Below are positions 1 through 57,005 of a DNA stretch of 64,000 nucleotides, piece by piece; positions within the stretch are counted from its first letter, which is position 1; every line of letters begins with the position of its first letter. Position numbers and translations under genes: made by a program. A model generated the notes under the pieces. That model did not search any database and was not told where the DNA came from. It was given only the letters and a program-made list of their open reading frames with translations. Origin of the DNA: Bolinopsis microptera (Eukaryota > Ctenophora > Tentaculata > Lobata > Bolinopsidae). The DNA lies in the NCBI RefSeq assembly GCF_026151205.1, contig NC_087076.1, forward strand, positions 17,455,919-17,519,918, in the 5' to 3' direction.

Positions 1-681
1 GTATTTTAACCACCGATTACCTTCACTGTTCGATTAATCTATCACTCTTTAATTTCTCCAACCTTATCAGGACAGTTTGTTGGAAGAGAATTGACAGATG
101 GAATTGTGGACCACTTTATAGCCTCCCACAACGGCTCAGAATGTGGCAACAACACAGAGAGTTAACTCTCGCTTGACAGATCCGATCAGATAGACAGATT
201 GGATAATAGACTTATTTTGCGTCGGGACTTCTTGATTTTAATTTTACTTACCCGGCTCATACTACATAAATCAAGTTGTGTTACGGCCGCCGTTAATCAT
301 TTTGAATTGAACACTATTAAATACAATACTTAATAACCAGTAAAAATTTTAATACGGGAGGTGAAAATAATACGTATTACTTATGTTTTCTTATAACCTA
401 ATTTCAATCGTTGATTTTATTAGGCCATATATTCAAATTATATATATATTCAATATTAATATCATCCCCTTGATGTTACCTCGATTAAATCTTCTTCCAG
501 GAAAAATGAAATCGTTTGATTTTATTCTACGGGTACAGCTTCATAATTCTCACTGATTTATGAATCTATACCACTCTAATTTCCGCTTTGTAAACGTCTC
601 AATTTAATATCATTAATTTAAATCTAATAGATTACTTCCCGGCAGGCCCTGACTCATTTCGTACCGGAGATAACAGAAACA
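1..681 (+). repeat. Segmental duplication, copy 1 (partner 3688-4352)
   Basis: From about position 18 to 681 this segment is a near copy of 3688-4352, in the same orientation and offset by about 3.67 kb, with only scattered substitutions and small indels. Both copies hold a splice acceptor, a short coding exon ending in a stop, and AT-rich sequence after it. Similarity ends abruptly after the shared run ggagataaca; copy 2 then runs into the next exon of the pentraxin/Sel1 gene, while copy 1 runs into unrelated DNA. The left edge may lie outside the window. Confidence 0.9.
71..165 (+). CDS. Duplicated terminal exon of a pentraxin-type gene (partial)
   Basis: After the acceptor ttatcag at 64-70 a phase-1 exon reads GQFVGRELTDGIVDHF and ends SECGNNTES-stop (taa 163-165). 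It is the paralogue of exon 3742-3836, which has the same phase, length and last nine residues, and is related to the internal exon 3349-3462 (shared G-x-x-x-T-G-V/I-V-D/N-H-F pattern). The rest of its gene, if any, lies upstream of the window. It may be the end of a second pentraxin-like gene or a stranded duplicate with no partner exons. Function is unknown beyond its kinship to the neighbouring gene. Confidence 0.5.
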
Positions 682-844: not shown

Positions 845-1183
845 GAAAATCGAGTCTAAAAATCTATTCCTCCTACATTTTTTGAGCAATCACCCTCAAA
901 CTTTCAGTATATGTTCTAAGGATCATTTAGAAGAGATCGTCCAGGCAAAATTTTGAGATAGGCCTTTAAACATTTTTTATTCGATTTTAAAAATCTTGGA
1001 CCTGGTTTTTTGACGATTTTTCGAGGTCCAAGATTTTTAAAATTGAATAAAAAATGTTTAAAGGCCTATCTCAAAATTTTGCTTGGATAATCTCTTCTAA
1101 ATGATCCTTAGAACATATTTAGAAAGTTTGAGGTTGATTGCTCAAAAAATGTAAGAGAAGATAGATTTTTAGACTCGATTTTC
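845..1183. repeat. Long foldback hairpin, arms of about 160 bp
   Basis: The sequence from about 845 to 1002 is repeated as its reverse complement at about 1021-1183, with a loop of roughly 18 bases (around ggttttttgacgattttt). Arms are nearly perfect; the clearest part is ttttaaaaatcttggacct against aggtccaagatttttaaaa. No coding capacity is seen. It resembles a foldback or MITE-type element. A transcript would form one long double-stranded stem. Confidence 0.85.
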
Positions 1184-2223
1184 ATTTGAAAAAAAATGAA
1201 CTCTAATATTTATTGATTTGACAAATTCCTCGAACCAGTGGTGGTAGTAAGTCATACCAGAAAGAATTATTTCAATTGGGCACTCAGTGACTGAGTTATT
1301 AAGGCCAACCTATGCCCACTGACTTTTGGCCCACCCTGTACATACATACAGACAGAATAATTCTTTGAATTAACTCGATAGCGGCTGTTTTCAATGTATT
1401 ACACGTTAAAATATGAATCGTCCTGGCCCCGTCAAAACGGACCCCTCAGGGTGTCAACGTTGCGACTATGTCATCACGTATTCTGGAAATCGTAGTTCAC
1501 ACCTGATATTAGTATAGCAGTTCCGATAAGCTATGTTGCCGTAGTTGCGATAAGCTACTGCTTGAATACGTTTGTTGACCAATAACATTTCCGGAAAGAC
1601 CCCCACGTGACAGCTCTGTTTTGTCATTGGAGAGTAATGGCAGCACAATTTTGAGTTTCAATACCACTATCAGTCATCGCAGTGAATTTCAAATTTGTTC
1701 GTTTACCTAATCTCCTCTGGTTATAGCTATTTGCTTTCGTTATCTCTATTTGCTTTCCTTGTGTCCCTTTAGGCGCTTAATATGCAAGTTTTGTGTCGTA
1801 TTGCGAGGGAATGCAACCTGATTAGTACCCACATCACCACCAAATGCGATGCGAACTCTGATCAATCTCATTTTTTGCACGAACTGGCCAAACACGGGCT
1901 ATAGCTAATCTACTAAAAGTTAAGGGGAATACAGAAGTCCGGTATATCGAGGTACCCGGTACAGAGAGGCACGGGAAAAAACATCATAATATGCAGCCTA
2001 GTTATCCGGTTTGAGGATTGTGCCAGCTGCGTAAGGTTTGTCGTGCTACTTTGTTCGATTGTAGATAACATTAATATTCTCCGGTTCAGAACAGGTTGAC
2101 GGTTAAAGTATTTACTCCATCTCCGGTAAGTCTCCATCTTCTATAATCGTATTTACACCTCGAACAGGGTACTATAGCCTATTATTCAGTACAAGCGTTA
2201 TTTCTGACATTCACTCCACCGAA
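1184..2223. other. Intergenic; presumed 5' region of the pentraxin/Sel1 gene
   Basis: No coding exon, repeat or RNA gene is recognised. The short open frames on the minus strand here lack splice context or family resemblance. The promoter and 5' UTR of the gene starting at 2224 should lie in the last few hundred bases, but no clear TATA box was identified. Confidence 0.4.
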
Positions 2224-3836
2224 ATGTTGCTCCTCTTAGTTGTCCTGGTTTTAGTAGCTTCCGTCCAGTCTAATGAAGATGATAAAGGGTATAATGCCCT
2301 CCATTTTGGTACTAGCACCAGTGACTATGTGACATTTAGTTTTCATATGTCCCCCTTCCGCAACTCGTTCTCTACGTGCATGTGGATAAAGCATCTGCAC
2401 TCCTCCGCCCAACCTACAGTAGTAAGCTACTACAGCTCTGCTGGAAATGATCTTACGATAACAGCTAATGGGCATTGGACTCATGTAGTAAATGATGGTG
2501 GTCTGGATAGCGCAAAAAGTAAGTTTACCACACCTGCCGGCCAGTGGTTTAGTCTCTGTCTGACCTGGTCTCTGTCTTCAACAACAAGTAACCTGTATCT
2601 GAATGGCGAACTTATAGGAACAGACCAGACAGCATCAGGGAAGTCACTTACCACGGGTGCGCAGTTGTGGTTAGGTAGGACCTCTAGCTCTTGGACTACT
2701 CACGCTAATTATGTGTTTGGTGGGGACCTTTACCAGTATAATATGTTTGCTGAGGTGTTAAGTGCTGCTACAATAAAGAAGATAGCTGATGGTGGGTTGT
2801 GTTTTGACCTTGATGAGCTAGCTGAGACAAGAGTGTTACGATGGGAGGACATTCTGAAGAAGTCTAGGAGTGGGTCTGTGAGTGAAGTTATGATGTGTCC
2901 TTGGAAAAAGAAATTTACTGAGTCACAAGCGAGTCTGGCTGACGCTATTGGACGGCTGAACGAAACAGAGACAGAGCTGCGGATGGTAAAGGAGCAGTTT
3001 CAAACTGTCACTGGACAGTTGAACAGGACTGAGGATAAACTTGAGAAAGCCAGAAAGTTTGAGAACATCACTCGGTGGGATGTGTTATATACATCGCCGT
3101 ATTACAACAAGGTATTCTCAGATGACCTGTACGAACAGCTGACTACAAGCTGGGGCTTGTTAAGTGAGTAATCTTCTTTCGTTACAATAACTGCTTAATT
3201 GAGACATTTTTTGCATATTTTTCATAGCAACTGCGTGTGCACATACTATTTTAGGTTTGAAAATTGTTCACTGTGGCATTGGAATTTGGATCTATTCAAA
3301 AATATGTTTTTTCTCTGCAATGCATTGAACTAATTTAAGACTGTTCAGGGAAATTGGTAGGTGCTAATATGACTGATGGGGTAGTCAACCACTTTCGGCA
3401 GTATCACTCGGAATCTATGTGTGGCGTCTTGGACCAACTTGCATCTTCTTGGGAGATGCTTAGTAAGTTATCTTTTCATATTTATTCAGATGAGGCTTGA
3501 GCTTGAGGGGTAAAATGTGTTTTTTTTTTATTTTGGCATGCCACTGCCTTTTTAAACTAGTGTGTCCACGTTTGTAACTGTATTGGCATTTCTCAATAAA
3601 TGACTGGTAAAAAGCGGAAGTCGTTTACCGATCAGCTTTAGTTTTTAAGTTTCGTCGGCAATTTTAATATGGAATTTTGTCTTCTAACAACCTTCACTGT
3701 TCGATGAATCTATCACTCTTTAATTTCTCGAACATTATCAGGCCAGTTTATCGGAGTTGAAATGACAAGGGGAATTGTGGACCACTTCAAAATCTCCCAC
3801 AACGGCTCAGAATGTGGCAACAACACAGAGAGTTAA
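2224..3836 (+). CDS. Secreted pentraxin/coiled-coil protein, short form with alternative last exon
   Basis: Exons 2224-3163, 3349-3462 and 3742-3836 (taa 3834-3836) join in phase 1 throughout and give 382 residues. The product has a signal peptide, one pentraxin domain (about residues 20-230), an acidic coiled coil, and two homologous tail modules (TDGVVNHF in exon 2, TRGIVDHF in exon 3). There is no membrane segment, so secretion is expected. The third exon is a duplicate of the second that has acquired a stop after GNNTES. Using it excludes the Sel1 exons, so long and short forms would be mutually exclusive. Pentraxins are calcium-binding ring-forming recognition proteins; ligand and role here are unknown. 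Confidence 0.6.
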
Positions 3837-6800
3837 CTCTCGCTGATACGCATAACAGATCCGATCAGATTGACAGATTGGATAAGACTTATTTTGGGTC
3901 GGGACTTGATTTTAATTTTACTTACCCGGCTCATACTACATAAATCAAGTTGAGTTACGGCCGCCGTTAATCATTTGAATTGAACACTATTAAGTATTGT
4001 GTAATCTTAACCAGTAAACATTTTAATACGGGAGGTGAAAAATAATACGTATTATTTATGTTTTCTTATAACCTAATTTCAATTGTTGATTTTATTAGGC
4101 CATATATTCAAATTATATATATATATTCAATATTAATATCATCCCCTTGATGTTACCTCGATTAAATCTTCTTCCAGGAAAAATTACCTCGTTTGATTTT
4201 ATTCTACGGAAACAGCTTCATAATTCTCACTGATTTATGAAACTATACCACTCTAATTTCAGCTTTTTAAACGTGTTAATTTAATATCATTAATTTAAAT
4301 CTAATAGATTACTTCCCGGCAGGCCCTGACTCATTTCGTACCGGAGATAACATTGCCTATAGCTGAGATCTTCTTCCTTTGTCGAGCACACGAAGTTGGT
4401 GGTGTGACCATAGTGACGTCACTGACAGATACTGACTTCGGTATGTTCAGAATGTAAACTTTATTACTTATTATTATTAATGAATTGTATTAGTTCTTAG
4501 GTTTTCGAGGTTAGATTAACCCAAACATTTCAGAAATCGTTTAGACGAATAACACTTTATCCACAGAGTGTCCAAATGACGCATACACGGGCGAGCCCAA
4601 GTGTTACAAACGTCTGAACAAGATAATCAAAAGATCTGCGATAAAACGTGTCGCACTGGAAGCTGGTATCATTGAAAGTCAGCTTACTCCTTTTTTAAAC
4701 TGTTCAAAACCTGCTGCTGGGTAAGGAACAAAATTAGTTTTGCAGTGAGGCGAAGTTTGTAAAAATTGTTCTCTTTTTGAATGTTGCTTTATAAATTCTA
4801 TGTGTCGTTGGTTTCAACTTTCAGCTAAAAATGATTGTCTTTAAACTAGTTTAGTAAAAGGTAGCAAGCCCCTCCTTTCTTTTACTGCGAGATGACTATT
4901 TTATTTCTTAGCTGATTAAACTATTATCTGATTTAATGACTGACCTGTAAACAATTGCAGACAGTGGATAAGAGATAATCTACCAGATAAGTCGCTCTCT
5001 AACCTGAGCGGAACACTGTATACAGCTGGAAAAGAGCTGCTGAGGTCTGAGTCTTATTGTAGTGGGGTGGTTCTGCTCGTCTTGAGTGGTTGTTACGGCT
5101 CACCTGAGACATTGTTCACTCTTGCAGCTTTATTCAAAACTGGTATTCTTCTCCCTCAAAACTCATTATTGGTGAGAAACGTGCTTCATAGTATGCAGTT
5201 AGTACCCTATACTGTCTTCTTATATTTAACTTTCATTTTCTGACTATACATAGTTGCCACTTTTACGATTGCTAAAATTTTAAATTTCTCAACAAATGAT
5301 TGGCAGGTGTTCTGGTTATGTTTATGCTAACGGATCATTTAATTCAGGGCAGAGAGTTTACGCTAGTTGCAGCGACACAGAGTTCAATACTCGCCAATCA
5401 AGCTCTTGCTTCACAAACTTCCGCCTGCCCTCTACAATTCGGTGCGTTATCTCCCGTTATAATGAACGGAAAATTATATTCTGCCACGTAGATTATGAGA
5501 TTTAAAATAAAATTAGGTACCAGAGGTACCAATCTGTTCATTATTAAAACTAGGTCCTTCTAATAATGAAAGCCAGGACCGTTCCACGTTGATTATCATA
5601 CAGAAAAGATTATTATAATTACTCTTTAAATTCACCTAATTTGTGACTTGGTACAATCTACCGTTACGTGACACTACGGTATTACAGCATACCACGGCGC
5701 GGTGGCAGAGCGCTTCATGTTGGAGTGGAAGCGAGCTGAGTCAGAGGACCTGATAGCGGAACGTACGCGCCTGAAACACGGCGAGTTGTCCCATCAGGAG
5801 GGAGCTGATGATCAAGTCTTTCAGTTCTTGCTGATGCAGGCTCAACAGGTTCGGAGATTCCTTGAAATCATGATCATCTTTAGTCATCTAGATTTAATGA
5901 TTTAACCGATTTCAGCATTTTTTTTGCAATTTTTCTCAAACGTTTTAGGTCACCCTGTCATGTTATTCAAAGTCATTTTTCTTTCAGGGAAATCCAGAAG
6001 CTCAGGCCAACATAGGACGTATGTTTTATTGGGGACAAGGTGGGGTAGATAGGAACATCGAAGAAGCTTTTGAGATGCAACATGCTGCAGCCCTTCAGAA
6101 TCATCCTGACGGCCTTTTTGATGCCGGGATCATGCTGCTTAAAGGACACGGAACGGATAAAAATGTGAGACATTAAAAAACTTTTTTTCCTGATTATCCA
6201 TTATTATAGGAATAGATAATTTATTTAAGATAAACGTTTAGGAATTTATGACAAATTAAAATCCTCAAACAGCCGCCATAAGTCAACACTCATTTATATT
6301 TTAGACGACGAAGGCTAGACAATACCTTGAAAAAGCTGCTAAAGCTGGTCACAAAGGAGCACCTGGAACTATAGGTATTTTTCAATAGATTATAATATAC
6401 TTTCATCATTATTGTGTGTTCAGACATTTATCAACAAGATAATTTAGTCTATTATTTGATGAATTTTCACTAGAGTTGGTAACATTGTAATAGATAACAA
6501 CTAGTTATCTGCATATTTATAACAAACGTGCTGTCGTCTAGAAATAACATTTAATGATCAGGTTATCTGGAACTAAATGAGAATGGGAACGTGACAGGAG
6601 CAGTGCACTATTTCAACCAATCACATCAACTTGGAGACACAGATGCTACTCACAATCTCGCCATTATACAAACATTCTACGAAACGTTCGATCCTGATCC
6701 TGTAAGTTTTTAATAGATTATCTGCCAGTTTGAACTCTAATGTTTGGTCTGTCTAGAAGATGTCGATATTTATCTCCCATTAACTCTGATTTTCTCTGCA

Positions 6801-8486
6801 GTATTACGCACACAAGATGTTCAAGCTGGCATCTGACGGAGGACACAAAGACGCTACTATGATCTCAGCTGAACAGAGTTTACACGGTATACATAACCAG
6901 ACAGGAGATTGTCCATCCGCTCTCAAGTAAGAATTTACGGTTATATGGGAACCTGAGTTAACCTTCTTTTTACTGAAGGATGCATAACTCATACAGTTAG
7001 TTGCTGATCAGTAGTCGGTTCATTGTCGTTATAATTCAGATTTTGGCAAGTAAAACATAACTCAGCTAGTTGAAGATAACAGTTTTCTGTTTTCAGGTAT
7101 ATCAAGAAACTGTCGGATCAGAGTAACTACGTAACAAGGTTGATGCGGGAAGCAGTCAAGTCTTATCAGGATGGAAAATATGACGATGCATTTCTAGAGT
7201 ACCTTATTCTCGCTGAATCAGGCATCGAAATGGCTCAGTATAATCTCGGATGGCTCTGTCAACAATTCCCATTCGAGGTATTCATTGATAATGAATCTCA
7301 ATATAATATATCCAAATATCCAGATTTATCTACAGCATCGCAATATATGAATATAAGTCCATTTCGAAATCGGCGCCAAAGGGTCTACTTTCTATTAAGA
7401 TTGGAACGCGCGAGATAATTTATTACATATCGTTCATACTGTCAGCTATCAGAAAGTCGATTAACGCGCGCGCGCGCAATATTATGTTTACTCAAGACTG
7501 GCCCGTTTATATCTTATCATACGTGTTTATTTATCGGCGAAAACACCGAACGGTATTAAGTAAATCCCGCTTCATTCCAGATTACTCACCAAATACCAGA
7601 GTGCACAAGAGAGTATTACTCTAAGTCTGCTGGCAATGGCTACGGTCCATCACAAGCGTTTCTCGCAAACCATCTCTGGAAAAAGGGAGATTACTACGAA
7701 TCAGCGCGTTGGTACGCTAAGGCAGCGGACAACAAAGTTGATGAGGTTAGCATATTATGTTCTATAATCCCTACAGTTATCTGGTACCTGACCTTCCAAT
7801 TTTCTATAACCCCCCCCCCCCCCCCCTCCCCCTGTTAAACTGGCCTGGGATTATAGGGATTCATAATAATCTAATAATTGTAATTTATCGAACATCACCA
7901 TCTGTTATATCCCCTTATATCATGTTAGCTCTCTTAATGTTTAAATGCTTAAGCGTAATCTGTAATATTATGTTTTTCATATAAATAAATTAAACTCATT
8001 TTCAGGGTCTATTTGGACTTGGTTACTTCGCAAAAGAGGGGATAGCCGTAGGTGTAGTGACAGTCAACAAAACCTCCATTTATTTTGGCCCAGATCAGAA
8101 CATCACACTGACCAAAGAACTTTGGAGCGACTGCTTTCATCTGGTTAGTTTTTAATATCATGTAGATAATCTAAAGCCCTTGGAATAGTTTAACGTTGCA
8201 TTTTTAAGGACACTCTTCGGTCTTTCTATAATTCGGTCTTACTATACGAACTTTAGGGATCACGGCCTCTTTTATTATAAGGAAACATTTAAGGATAAAG
8301 GAAATATGAGAACTAATAACACGGATCTTACAGGGTGGAGAAGAAGCTGTAGTTGGTTGCGGAGTTCCACTTCTCTGGTTTACTCTGACCAGCATCTCAC
8401 TTTCTACTCTTCTTACCACCCTCCTTCCTGCAGTCTCAGTCCTGGCTGTTCTAGCTCTCGTTGTGAGCCGATGCACTAGCTCTTAG
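2224..8486 (+). CDS. Pentraxin-Sel1 repeat membrane protein (SEL1L/SEL1L3-like), long form
   Basis: Exons with matching phases: 2224-3163, 3349-3462, 4363-4440, 4567-4720, 4961-5190, 5307-5441, 5688-5848, 5988-6164, 6305-6374, 6562-6701, 6802-6926, 7097-7277, 7581-7745, 8006-8143, 8334-8486. They sum to 2961 nt (986 residues). A signal peptide (MLLLLVVLVLVASVQS) is followed by a pentraxin-type domain: CMWIKHL, CLTWS, LYLNGE, GDLYQYNMF, then RVLRWEDILKK. The paired cysteines match the family disulfide. A coiled coil follows (about residues 235-275). The later exons carry Sel1-like helical repeats (GNPEAQANIGRMFYWGQGG, GLFGLGYFAKEG; EYLILAESGIEMAQYNLGWL resembles SEL1L). The last exon encodes one hydrophobic helix near the C-terminus. 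SEL1L proteins are ER-membrane adaptors of ERAD; that role here is inference. Weakest points: joining 3462 to 4363, and donor choices at 5190 and 5848. It could instead be two genes. Confidence 0.7.
3688..4352 (+). repeat. Segmental duplication, copy 2
   Basis: Partner of 1-681. It comprises the end of the intron before the alternative last exon, that exon (3742-3836), and the following intron up to just before the acceptor at 4361-4362. The copy at 1-681 therefore looks like a lift of an intron-exon-intron block rather than a whole gene, unless the rest lies upstream of the window. Confidence 0.85.
7810..7832 (+). repeat. C homopolymer within an intron
   Basis: A run of about 17 C, one T, then more C lies in the intron between exons 7581-7745 and 8006-8143. 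It is a simple-sequence tract prone to length error. Confidence 0.9.
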
Positions 8487-11021
8487 TTTAAACTAGCAGA
8501 ATTAAATTTTTAAGAGATAGCTTGAACTATTAAATTAACACACGCATCGGTTAATCTCTTCAGTGTTTCATGCTGTTTATCTAGTCTATCTCGAAAACTT
8601 GCTTGTGGGTTTTTAGTTATTTTTGCGCATTCATATCAAGACCATGCAAAATATATATATATATATATATATCAATTTGAGCTTTCTAAACAAAAGTGTA
8701 ATATTTCAGTGATCTGTTTGGAAAGAAATGTTAAATAGGATCAGTCTGAATTGAAAATTCATAACATTCATGCCGTTTGATTGAATTCCATCTTTCAGTT
8801 CATAATTATTCCTTTTTTAGTGGTTGATCTAGATTTTGAGTTTTCAGTGCGAATTTTGTATTATATCATAATTGATGGGGTTAACTTTCAGAATTTTTAA
8901 TTTACGATTGAGTTTCTATATAAACCGATGAGAGCTGTGTTATAATACAGTTATTTATAAGTCGTCTGAAATATTATGTTGAAACTTTTCAATTCAATAA
9001 AGAAGTCATTTGAATCTTTGTTAAAACACATTTTACCAAAACAAATAAAACTTTACATAGATTAACCCTTCGGCCTTCATAAATTAAAATTACCGTCACG
9101 AGTGTCACACAGTCATCTAAAGATATCGTGGATATGGACATATTATTTACTCTGTTAAAATAGAAGAACCGCTTCTGTTTGTGTCGCAGATTTTCGACAA
9201 TCTCTGAAATCCCATAATACAAAAATTGACTTTATTGACAAGAATGTACACGAATAATAACAAGCATTAAATAAACCACGCTGATGTGCTTTATGCTTGT
9301 TACCTACATGTCCTACAAGACTAGCTGTAAAATGTCGCATCATACAAATAAAAGTTGTATCTGACCAAAACTTCGAAATCCGGCAGATGGTCGACAATTA
9401 ACACTGTCCCTAAACAATCTTTTGTGCCAATTCCATGTTGATTTTCGAGGCTAAAGTTGAATCAAATCACCTTGAGTTACCCTTATTCAACTTCTGACAT
9501 TTTGATCTGAAATTATATTCCATGTTATAATTCTGGATCAAACCCGATGTAATACTTGATTATAATGGTGGGCAGATGATTTCAGTTTCCATTTTAACTA
9601 AAAACATAAAGGGTTCACAATGCTAATTAGTTCTCCCTAACCTGGCACTTCCACTGGAAGAGTTGTCCGACACATCAGTAATTATCGTTTTAGAAGCATC
9701 CATACTCTGCTTAGCATACTTCATTTGGTGAGCTGTCTAAAATGATAAGCTGCTAGTTTACAATAATAACCGATCAAAATTCGATCAATAATTTTAATTC
9801 TTATCGTGAATTCTCAAGAACTTAAAATAGGCCTTAAATTATAGCGATCGAACTCTTACTGTATGTAACACGAAAAGTATTTTATATAAACACTAAACAT
9901 TCTATAGTCATTTAAAATAGATATATATTTTTTAGTTTACCGCCGATACCAAGACGTATGGATATCAAATAAAAATACCTCGTAAAGACATAAACGTCGA
10001 CTTTACGATGTGTAGTATACATACACGGACAAGCACTGATTAATTTAACAACTCATACAATAATTCTGAACGAATTATTACATCACTTCATTTTCAGATA
10101 GCCTCACTAAATTACGCGTATTTATAAGTTGATTCAGATAAGTAGTACTGGATACAGTTACAGTTTTAATCTGCCAAATAAAGTATTCCATACTAATGGA
10201 AAGCATTTTTGGTGGGTTTTGATTGGGGTTACTGAATAGTTCGAAAACTATACGGATACAGAGATTGGTATTCGATATTCGGTTTGACCGAATAGTTAAG
10301 TAGTTTGTGATTCAGTCGAATACCGAATACTGAATATGATTCGGTAACCTTAGATTAACTAAAGTGTTATCTCGAACTATTCAGTCATTTGTTAAGTCTA
10401 AAATGGGCTTCTTATCAATTTAGATATACAAATTTAATGCTACGATATACATGACTAGAAGTAGAACCAGAACGCTTATAATGTGCTGCTCAGGAAACCT
10501 GATAAGGTGCTAACAGCTGTACCTTTCCCCTCAGCTGTTTGGAATAAGAATCACACGTATGCTTGAACTCCTTGGTTGACAGTTTGGAGAGGCGTATGTA
10601 AGTGTATTTCCACATCACAGCTTCCATACTTTGGTTATCGTGACTTACTGGCAAGCCCAGCTTTATCCTGTCAACCCGGTGGTAACCTGAAATTTGAGAG
10701 TGTTTAATCTGTTAATGTAACTACTCTAGGAACATAAACCATGAATTAAATGGAGAATCAAGTCCAAACAATGTGATTGTTTATAGTGCCACGAGAAGTA
10801 TCACTACAATCTTTTAAAATCGAACACTTATTTTACTTCGGACATTCCAACAGCCAATTACAGGACGCCGAAGGATTCAATTATACATTTGCATTAGGCC
10901 AGTGACGGTTAAGGTAGTGTGTAGTGTGTACCATACTTTCTTCACCCGCGACTTTACTGCAATGGGCAGCTCCCCATTTAACTCTCACACCCGGTTTCTC
11001 GAGTATTCGGCTGAGTGGACC
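8487..11021. other. Intergenic, AT-rich, no gene recognised
   Basis: This is 3' flank of the pentraxin/Sel1 gene followed by unassigned DNA. A (TA)n tract lies at about 8650-8672. Around 10250-10350 there is a run rich in CGAATA/TATTCG words. Open frames at 8989-9397 (-) are short, overlap each other in different frames, and show no domain or splice pattern. Confidence 0.5.
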
Positions 11022-19083: not shown

Positions 19084-19873
19084 AATGATTTGCTATAATA
19101 CTATTATATAGTTAGTAGTTCCTTCTAATTTTCTGTCTGCTCGGTTTTAAGCTGACCAACTAAGCCACATCTTTTTATTAGCAGGTTGATTAATTTACTG
19201 GAGAATTACACCAATCTTATAAAAATCTTAGTAAGTTAGTTTTAGACGACGCCACACCTTGATTAATTCAACAAATTCAATGCCATATTCTTGATTAATT
19301 TTGGAGAAAAAAAGTACTATAATGCCGTACTCACAATCCTCGTAACATCGTGTAAACTCAGTCAACAGATCGTACAACGTCTGAAATTAAATTTTATTAA
19401 TTCAATTATCTAATACCATATTTTAAACAAATCAGTCATTTAATATCGGCTCACATAACATATAGTATGAAACGATTTTTAACCACGTGCAGTGCGCGAT
19501 AACTAGCGTCATCTGGTTGAGGCACAATTTTTTCATTACTCAACCGTAACTTTTCGTTTAATATTCAAAGAGTAGAGTTAATGAAACCGTCCAAAACGCT
19601 GTGGTTAGCTGCAGGGTAATCAGCTTTATTGCCTCTTCACAGAGCTTTTCCTCTCTTTGCTTTAGCTTTCATTCGCGCTACTCGACCATTGTTCACTTTC
19701 TCCACAGAGTACTCACGCTTAATTCTAATTATAACTATTTCCCGGAGGGAAGGGAGACTTTTACTTCAATAAAAATTAATCATCTTTGTTGAAATCAAAT
19801 TAATTAGGCTTGTCACCCTTCTACTTCTCCAGACAATGAAGAGTAATCAGCATAAAAAGCACGAGATTAACCA
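19084..19873. other. Intergenic, presumed 5' flank of the receptor gene
   Basis: No exon or repeat recognised. A 63-codon frame at 19601-19792 (+) shows no motif and is probably chance or 5' UTR. Confidence 0.4.
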
Positions 19874-21332
19874 ATGTTTCCACTTCTAAAGTTTTCGTTC
19901 AGGATGACAGCGGGAAATGACGAGCAAGAAAGGTTGGGAGATATCTGGGTTATCCTCAACACCACCATGCTTATCGTCTCTGCCATTCTATGTTACCTAG
20001 GTTACGGCTTCATCTTCAACGTAATGAGGGGAGACAAAGTACGAGGAATGGTTAAAACGGAGCAGTGCTGGGGGATCTCACTGGGAGTTTCCGACTTGAT
20101 GGCAGCAACTCTAACCATCCCCATATTCTTTTCCGGGCTGATAATTCAGAGGGATTTCCTGCCGTGGTGGCTGTGTTACATTGTTGGGTTTATTGATAAC
20201 CTCTATCTGGCAGCCTCTATTTGGTCTATAGTCATGTGGAGTGTCTGCAGATACATCTTCATCCGGAACCCTCTCAGCCTGAACCATCTCAAGATAACAA
20301 AGATCCTGATCTTCTGTGTGTGGATCAGCGCAAGTCTCCTGGCTCTATTCCCTCTCGTCTTCTCAATGCCCTACAAGTTCTCTACCTACTCTTTGACATG
20401 TTCCAGTGGTAGCCTTCACTACAACCTCGCTTTGGGTCTCCTCACCATAGTTCTCTCTCTTTCTGTTATCACCGTCATTTTCTCGCTTACATTCCGCATA
20501 ACTGCACGCATGGACAGAGCTAAGAAGATCACATTCCATGGCAATGTGCGATGAGTTACCAGTCCCTTCCCTTCCCAACAAATGTAGGGGTGCACCAAGA
20601 TCGCTCCGCTTAGTGGAAACTGATCACCTGACTCCGAAGAGGACCGTTCCAGTTTTCAGCAGAAGCAGCACTGAGGAGGATGATGAACTGATCTGTACTG
20701 ACACCGTTAATCCAGGTGAGGGGGTGGGAGACAGATTCTTCATGAAATCTTGGAGTCAGACTTCAACAATCCTTGAAGAAATCGAGCAGGCAAACATGGT
20801 ATCACCAAAGCAATGGCACACAGAGTGTTCCAGAGAAAAGGAGTCTCCCAAAGCATTCGATTGTTCCTCGGCTGAAACGATCTTCTCTGACATGATTTCA
20901 CCAGTCTTCATCAAATCTCAGCAGTTCAGATGGACGCCTATGCCACCGGTGACAACTAAAAGACCAGGGATGACAAAGATGCTCAACAAACAGCATAAAG
21001 ATAAAAAGGAAAGAAAAAAAGCATTGACAGGCAGCAGGAGAACTCTGGTGGTACTCACCTGTCTCTTCATCACCCAGGTCATGTCTCTTCTTCCCATTTT
21101 CCTCCTCTTCGTACTGGTTCACTTCAGCGGGGAAGAAAAGTGGGTTCCCAGCCAAAGGATGATAATTCTCATGACAACTCTTATGGTCTGCAACACCGGA
21201 TTTAATCCCATAATAAGGATCGTTATAAAACCATCCTACAATGCCATGTTTGTGATGAAAATCACAGATATTTGGGCAGTGATCAGGAGAGTCACTTTCA
21301 ATGGTAACAATTACTCTGACAGGTTTTTTTAA
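19874..21332 (+). CDS. Divergent class A (rhodopsin-like) GPCR, interrupted by a frame change
   Basis: The first frame (19874-20554, or from the second ATG at 19904) encodes TM1 (about 24-51), TM2 with LGVSDLMAA (the conserved TM2 Asp), Cys101 before TM3, CRY at 125-127 in place of DRY, TM4 with its Trp150, Cys176 in the second extracellular loop, and TM5 (about 184-208). It then stops. An overlapping frame shifted by one (open from 20502, to taa 21330-21332) supplies a long Ser/Lys-rich third cytoplasmic loop of about 170 residues, TM6 (RRTLVVLTCLFITQVMSLLP) and TM7 with NTGFNPIIR in place of NPxxY. Together they make a complete seven-helix receptor of about 480 residues. The break may be a one-base assembly error, a true frameshift, or a short intron (a GT lies at 20546-20547; an in-phase AG about 95 bp later). 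The ligand cannot be inferred. Confidence 0.8.

Positions 21333-32928: not shown

Positions 32929-57005
<24,077 letters not shown>

What the first reader, a model, noticed from the sequence alone, without database searches (positions are those of the whole stretch)
2224..8486. Pentraxin domain joined to Sel1 repeats and a C-terminal membrane anchor
Fifteen exons keep phase from signal peptide to stop (2961 nt, divisible by three), combining a secreted-type recognition domain with an ERAD-adaptor-like Sel1 solenoid. I do not recall this as a standard architecture; SEL1L3 has an N-terminal region that may be a diverged version.
Basis: partly seen in the sequence, partly recalled or inferred. Interest (0 to 1): 0.7.

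Follow-up and report, generated by a model that had tools for sequence, protein, structure and literature searches.

The report
Pentraxin-headed SEL1L3-like membrane gene
An animal gene (probably from a comb jelly) appears to join a pentraxin-like recognition head, shared with a secreted protein family, to the membrane-bound back half of SEL1L3, a relative of a protein-quality-control adaptor, and it also carries a spare last exon that would give a short secreted form.

Summary
The 15-exon chain is real, but two points change its reading. E1 carries Laminin_G_3/pentraxin, later exons Sel1 repeats, and the end a hydrophobic anchor.

It has the same acceptor phase as the next Sel1-side exon and ends in a stop. 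Nine of 18 other fetched stretches with this pentraxin gene carry it with the stop in the same place. So the locus can encode a short secreted protein as well as the long one.

Second, residues 438-952, anchor included, match SEL1L3 (human sequence recalled, E 1e-49). SEL1L3's own N-terminal half, with its own weaker LamG domain, lies elsewhere in this genome (contig C9) and does not resemble the window's N-terminus.

Best reading: one gene, a lineage-specific fusion of a secreted pentraxin/coiled-coil gene with the SEL1L3 C-terminal half, keeping the old last exon as an alternative end. LamG+Sel1+anchor as such is the SEL1L3 plan. No transcript evidence was available.

The parts
73..165 (+). 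E3alt-type exon of the upstream tandem copy (first full codon at 73, stop at 163-165)
   Evidence: 80% identical to E3alt, same acceptor phase, stop directly after
2224..3163 (+). E1: signal peptide, Laminin_G_3/pentraxin-like domain, coiled coil, start of a short C-terminal module
   Evidence: Pfam; PTX3 1.4e-8; model
3349..3462 (+). E2: phase 1-1 exon, short conserved module
   Evidence: model; found again in 17 of the 18 other stretches
3742..3836 (+).
   Evidence: conserved with stop in the same place in 9 of 18 other stretches; genome search
4161..4166 (+). ATTAAA, possible poly(A) signal of the short form (consensus match only)
4363..4440 (+). E4: first exon of the Sel1 half
   Evidence: remnants in five other copies
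4567..4720 (+). E5
4961..5171 (+). E6: SEL1L3 similarity begins (residue 438)
5348..5441 (+). E7
5688..5848 (+). E8
5988..6164 (+). E9: Sel1 repeat
   Evidence: Pfam Sel1 4.3e-9
6305..6374 (+). E10
6562..6701 (+). E11
6802..6926 (+). E12
7097..7277 (+). E13: stretch shared with SEL1L and SEL1L3
7581..7745 (+). E14
8006..8143 (+). E15
8334..8486 (+). E16: C-terminal hydrophobic anchor and stop
   Evidence: hydropathy peak 2.59 at residue 942; aligned to SEL1L3 up to residue 952
8996..9001 (+). AATAAA, possible poly(A) signal of the long form (consensus match only; another at 9044)

Best explanation
One gene at one locus, with probably two products. The long product is E1-E2 spliced to E4-E16. 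It enters the secretory pathway by its signal peptide and is held in a membrane (by analogy the ER) by its C-terminal anchor. It carries a Sel1 solenoid of the SEL1L3 type and, in place of SEL1L3's own N-terminal half, a pentraxin-like domain on a coiled coil (presumably oligomeric). The short product, E1-E2-E3alt, is the same head without solenoid or anchor and would be secreted, like the other members of this expanded family. The locus probably arose when a secreted pentraxin/coiled-coil gene came to lie upstream of the C-terminal half of a SEL1L3 gene and was spliced onto it, keeping its old last exon. Likely function: solenoid and anchor act at the HRD1/SEL1L machinery as reported for human SEL1L3, and the pentraxin-like head supplies ligand or client recognition; the short form binds the same ligand without the anchor. 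Shown: sequence, phase, homology, conservation of the two ends, intact reading frame. Inferred: splicing, secretion, location, ligand, fusion history. Within this reading I put joined splicing at about 0.8, replacement rather than divergence of the head at about 0.65-0.7, and use of both ends at about 0.6.
For: In-frame GT-AG chain; E4-E16 intact over 614 codons where neutral drift of 0.1 per site leaves 0 of 500 runs without stops; no start codon with a usable donor between E3alt and E4; residues 438-952 match recalled SEL1L3 at E 1e-49, anchor included; SEL1L3 N-terminal half found on contig C9 (E 8e-28 to recalled human; Laminin_G_3 23.6 bits) and unlike the window head (E 5.6); E3alt with stop in the same place in 9 of 18 other stretches; Sel1 exons or remnants only in the window's clade of the head family within the fetched stretches; SEL1L3 C-terminus binds HRD1 in human cells (PMC13280011, passages).
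Against: No RNA evidence for E2-E4 or E2-E3alt splicing. The human SEL1L3 letters were recalled. Window LamG and the recalled SEL1L3 LamG region keep a weak similarity (4 and 24 of 2000 shuffles), which would fit divergence instead of replacement. E3alt is nearly unconstrained between the window and its closest copies (dN/dS 0.67-0.90, about 17 synonymous sites), so in the window it may be a relic. E4-E5 show no similarity to SEL1L3. Other intact Sel1-half copies could not be searched for (among others unanswered).
Confidence: 0.6

Rival explanations
1. Ordinary SEL1L3: the pentraxin-like domain is SEL1L3's own LamG, diverged, and the domain before it was lost. E3alt and the secreted family are later by-products of duplication with loss of the Sel1 half.
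For: Both have a LamG-type domain before the Sel1 half; weak similarity of the LamG regions (4 and 24 of 2000 shuffles); five other copies show decayed Sel1 exons, so loss of the Sel1 half does occur.
Against: The SEL1L3 N-terminal half is recognisable on C9 in the same genome and unlike the window head (E 5.6); profile comparison of the head family with recalled SEL1L3 is not significant; the outer clade of the head family has E3alt-type ends but no Sel1 exon in the fetched stretches.
Confidence: 0.2
2. Two genes: the secreted gene E1-E2-E3alt ends at 3836, and E4-E16 belong to a separate gene.
For: E3alt is a conserved last exon; the tandem repeat unit ends 10 bp before E4; ATTAAA at 4161.
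Against: No ATG with a usable donor between 3837 and 4362 and none in E4's frame before the exon; a lumenal solenoid with a C-terminal anchor needs a signal peptide; no SEL1L3 N-terminal match below E 0.5 in about 13.5 kb upstream of the upstream copy.
Confidence: 0.12
3. E4-E16 are a relic without function beside a working secreted gene.
For: Five other copies show exactly this decay.
Against: In the window all 13 exons and every junction are intact, and from E6 on they follow SEL1L3 to the anchor.
Confidence: 0.05
4. The fusion is right but E3alt is a dead relic in this copy, so the locus makes only the long form. (Not exclusive with the best explanation: it removes only the second product.)
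For: dN/dS of E3alt between the window and its closest copies is 0.67-0.90.
Against: Acceptor, reading frame and stop are intact, and its acceptor is richer in pyrimidines (10 of 15) than that of E4 (7 of 15).
Confidence: 0.3

Closest known systems
SEL1L3 (protein sel-1 homolog 3)
   Same: Residues 438-952 align to recalled human SEL1L3 527-1075 at 27% identity, E 1e-49, through Sel1 repeats and C-terminal anchor; overall plan LamG-type domain + Sel1 + anchor, the LamG of SEL1L3 being visible in its C9 relative.
   Different: The N-terminal half is not recognisably that of SEL1L3; coiled coil and E2 module added; alternative last exon.
Pentraxins (PTX3, neuronal pentraxins)
   Same: Pfam Pentaxin above cut-off in E1 (35.9 against 25 bits); PTX3 1.4e-8, with both cysteines of the aligned PTX3 stretch at C52 and C112; coiled coil beside the domain.
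   Different: Laminin_G_3 scores better (63.6 bits); pentraxin signature and calcium ligands (both recalled) not matched; coiled coil follows the domain; Sel1 half attached.
SEL1L / Hrd3 (ERAD adaptor)
   Same: Residues 571-885 match SEL1L chains at 8.3e-22; single C-terminal anchor.
   Different: 80 bits to SEL1L (phmmer) against 178 bits to recalled SEL1L3 (blastp; different programs); a SEL1L-like locus is on contig C11.
The secreted pentraxin/coiled-coil family of this genome (E1-E2-E3alt genes)
   Same: Same E1, E2 and E3alt exons and phase.
   Different: The other fetched members have no intact Sel1 half.

Membership tests
SEL1L3 | SEL1L3-type Sel1 solenoid | tested here: met
   E 1e-49 over residues 438-952 to recalled human SEL1L3
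SEL1L3 | C-terminal membrane anchor | tested here: met
   hydropathy peak 2.59 at 942, aligned to the SEL1L3 end
SEL1L3 | SEL1L3 N-terminal half (about 200-aa domain plus its LamG) | tested here: not met
   C9 copy of that half against window protein: best E 5.6; weak LamG similarity only. Hence 'SEL1L3-like', not filed as SEL1L3
SEL1L3 | binding of HRD1, ER location | not testable with these tools
   reported for human SEL1L3 (PMC13280011, passages)
Pentraxin | pentraxin domain by profile | tested here: met
   Pfam Pentaxin 35.9 bits, cut-off 25; Laminin_G_3 scores higher
Pentraxin | conserved cysteine pair | tested here: met
   C52 and C112 aligned to PTX3 cysteines
Pentraxin | signature H-x-C-x-[ST]-W-x-[ST] and calcium ligands (both recalled) | tested here: not met
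   read by eye in the alignment: SLCLTWSL at the signature; no acidic ligand cluster where PTX3 has GQEKNG. Hence 'pentraxin-like'
SEL1L | being the genome's SEL1L | tested here: inconclusive
   closer to SEL1L3; a C11 locus looks like SEL1L but was not modelled

The most novel reading that the evidence does not exclude
A SEL1L3-type quality-control protein has had its recognition half replaced by a fast-evolving, multi-copy secreted pentraxin-like module. One locus makes a membrane-anchored and a secreted version of the same recognition head by alternative last exons, so the head links a secreted (perhaps immune) recognition family to the ERAD machinery.
Probability: 0.45. Interest if true: 0.58.

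Novelty: new variant of a known kind. Interest (0 to 1): 0.42.

Why it matters
SEL1L3 is poorly understood; in the papers seen here its N-terminal half is called an effector domain without being named. A natural protein with that half exchanged for a pentraxin-like head would show that the SEL1L3 solenoid and anchor can be re-aimed by a new recognition domain, and would tie a secreted recognition family to ER quality control. The window also gives a clean candidate for gene fusion in which the old last exon is still present as a likely alternative end.

Tried and rejected
Intron loss inside E1: blastn gaps suggested an intron at the 823/826 junction of E1, lost here; one search shows no GT-AG boundary there, and the E1 frames of several paralogues run open across it, so it is longer coiled-coil sequence; rejected. 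Structure of residues 1-214 alone: mean pLDDT 39, not used for any search. Profile comparison of the LamG family with recalled human SEL1L3: probability 2.6, and one of 40 shuffles scored higher. Pfam finds no LamG in recalled human SEL1L3; the link rests on the C9 locus and on shuffles. E4-E5 against SEL1L3: 1614 of 2000 shuffles as good, i.e. nothing. Literature: no held paper has 'pentraxin' with 'Sel1 repeat'; 'Sel1' with 'LamG' gave 2 papers, a bacterial genome comparison and a thrombospondin study by their listing; 'pentraxin' with 'ctenophore' gave 4 listed papers, of which I read passages of one; 'protein sel-1 homolog 3' gave 3; of 757 papers holding at least two of SEL1L3, pentraxin, laminin G, concanavalin, LamG, lectin domain only the 15 listed were seen, none with SEL1L3. 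Only the held open-access library was searched.

Rows dropped: the LamG tree has 15 rows; C6, C10_6.69, C7_5.87, C5_2.000 and C3_19.3 were left out as broken, short or overlapping frames. The 18 'other stretches' include one contained in another (C5_2.000 in C5_2.003) and one pseudogene (C6). The profile was built from the window and the recalled human letters, so it favours them. The 41-bp binomial test was made on a stretch chosen because it looked conserved, and the three copies compared are related. The neutral simulation counts stops only, not frameshifts or splice sites.

Full report
What is in the sequence. From ATG 2224 to TAG 8486 the + strand holds 15 exons joined by 14 GT-AG introns in phase, 2901 nt, 966 aa. 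The protein has a hydrophobic start, a Laminin_G_3/Pentaxin domain (residues about 30-210), a coiled-coil-like stretch, Sel1 repeats, and a hydrophobic C-terminus. Among solved structures the head is closest by sequence to PTX3 (1.4e-8) and residues 571-885 to SEL1L (8.3e-22).

The genome. The window lies at 17.46 Mb of contig C5 of a 264.65-Mb assembly. Its 13 large contigs hold 258.07 Mb, 97.5% (lengths). The ctenophore Bolinopsis microptera is reported with 13 chromosome-scale scaffolds holding 97.23% of the assembly and about 254 Mbp by k-mers (PMC10232365, passages). So the source is probably that animal or a near relative; this is inference, not identification.

The missed exon. Between E2 and the next Sel1-side exon lies E3alt (3742-3836), a homologue of E2 with the same acceptor phase and a stop. 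E1 has many relatives: 27 DNA matches, and 12 open frames of at least 316 aa from a Met among the fetched copies besides the window, one of them (C5:17.13) without the usual start. In 9 of 18 other fetched stretches E3alt is present with its stop in the same place. The C7:18.19 stretch has two copies with the stop 4 and 8 codons further on. The other eight stretches gave no clear E3alt in that search, one of them a pseudogene (C6) and one ambiguous (C3:15.4). A genome search with E3alt gave 35 matches at E up to 1, some of them E2-type exons, and some weak ones (46-50% identity) in C7 and C9 copies of the eight. So E1-E2-E3alt is a whole gene in this family, and the family looks secreted.

History of the locus. 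A copy of the E1-E2-E3alt unit stands directly upstream (91% identity over 1980-4352); the repeat ends 10 bp before E4. The LamG tree of 15 rows has two clades. Within the fetched stretches Sel1 exons or remnants occur only in the window's clade: all 13 exons in the window, fragments in five other copies, which share a deletion of roughly 4460-5115 that removes E5 and most of E6 (the ends differ by about 100 bp between copies). LamG dN/dS against the window is 0.76-0.90 for the nearest copies (C5:17.13, upstream copy), 0.46-0.47 for the two C5:10.7-10.8 copies, and 0.14-0.33 for older ones where dS was finite over at least 185 aa: recent copies evolve fast or are relaxed. Partial or broken copies gave 0.69 (C10:6.69) and 0.81 (C6). 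E3alt itself gives 0.67-0.90 against the closest copies and 0.17-0.31 against C10, C8 and C5:2.0 copies, 0.54 against C5:17.13, on about 17-18 synonymous sites each.

Is the Sel1 half part of the same gene? E4-E16 have no start of their own nearby, would need a signal peptide for a lumenal solenoid with a C-terminal anchor, and are intact over 614 codons. At 0.1 substitutions per site neutral drift leaves 0 of 500 simulated runs without a stop; at 0.05, 8 of 500. The nearest upstream exons in phase are E2 here or E2 of the upstream copy. No SEL1L3 N-terminal match below E 0.5 was found in about 13.5 kb upstream of the upstream copy. That E4 has the same acceptor phase as E3alt had a one-in-three chance.

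Which family. Against human SEL1L3, recalled and not fetched, residues 438-952 align at E 1e-49, 27% identity over 554 columns, anchor included. That locus, on contig C9 at about 10.106-10.109 Mb, carries a SEL1L3-like Sel1 part and, behind it, SEL1L3's N-terminal half with its own LamG (E 8e-28 to recalled human SEL1L3; Laminin_G_3 23.6 bits, below the cut-off of 27.6). A further LamG exon of that kind stands about 16 kb away on the same strand. The window's head does not resemble that half (E 5.6). A weak similarity of the window LamG to the recalled human LamG region remains (4 of 2000 shuffles for the LamG region, 24 of 2000 for the whole N-terminal part); a profile comparison was not significant.

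Reading. The plan LamG + Sel1 + anchor is that of SEL1L3. This gene is best read as a SEL1L3 C-terminal half whose recognition half has been exchanged for a secreted pentraxin-like module, with the module's own last exon retained. I put one joined transcript at about 0.8, replacement rather than divergence at about 0.65-0.7, and use of both ends at about 0.6; overall 0.6 for the joined gene with an exchanged head.

How it may work. Human SEL1L3 is reported at the ER membrane; its C-terminal part binds HRD1, and it disrupts the SEL1L-HRD1 complex (PMC13280011, abstract and passages). [quoted passage not shown] By inference the long form here does the same with a different effector domain, and the short form is its unanchored counterpart. 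The pentraxin signature and calcium ligands, both recalled, are not kept, so the ligand cannot be guessed.

Limits. No RNA, no related species, one genome search did not complete, recalled human letters. The Sel1 family search found three loci at E 0.001 (window, C9, C11), all below the curated cut-off, among 16 candidates; it is a lower bound.

Noticed in passing
G000 C9 about 10105870-10108983, minus strand (L044, L045, L047, L048): A SEL1L3-like locus in permuted order: in one open stretch of 394 codons a Sel1 part (recalled human SEL1L3 814-953) is followed by the SEL1L3 N-terminal domain (99-309), then a LamG exon and a stop, no anchor seen; the Sel1 part before it changes frame once. A further SEL1L3-type LamG exon lies at C9:10122694-10123212, so tandem duplication is a likely cause.
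   Followed up: partly
window 4400-4440 (in E4); L014, L015, L016: 41 bp around TGACGTCA (a CRE-like palindrome) differ at only 1-2 positions in C10 and C8 copies whose E4 has lost its AG acceptor and 10 bp, while the LamG exons of those copies differ at 26-29%. Possibly a regulatory element; chosen by eye.
   Followed up: partly
window 870-1157: Inverted repeat, arms 134 nt, 93% complementary, 20 nt apart; looks like a short mobile element.
   Followed up: no
L025 (G000 C7:18182500-18192499): A relative of E1 whose coiled coil is extended by a tandem array of about 42-aa units; open frame of 738 aa from the Met.
   Followed up: no
window 19871-21332, + strand: Rhodopsin-type receptor: 7tm_1 2.3e-14 and 3.6e-5 in two overlapping open frames.
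   Followed up: no
window 32929-34812, - strand: Cyclic nucleotide phosphodiesterase exons, PDEase_I 2.4e-24 and 2.7e-8.
   Followed up: no
window 45709-46341: Long simple repeat that reads open in several frames (GGRE / PPSL repeats); not evidence of a gene.
   Followed up: no
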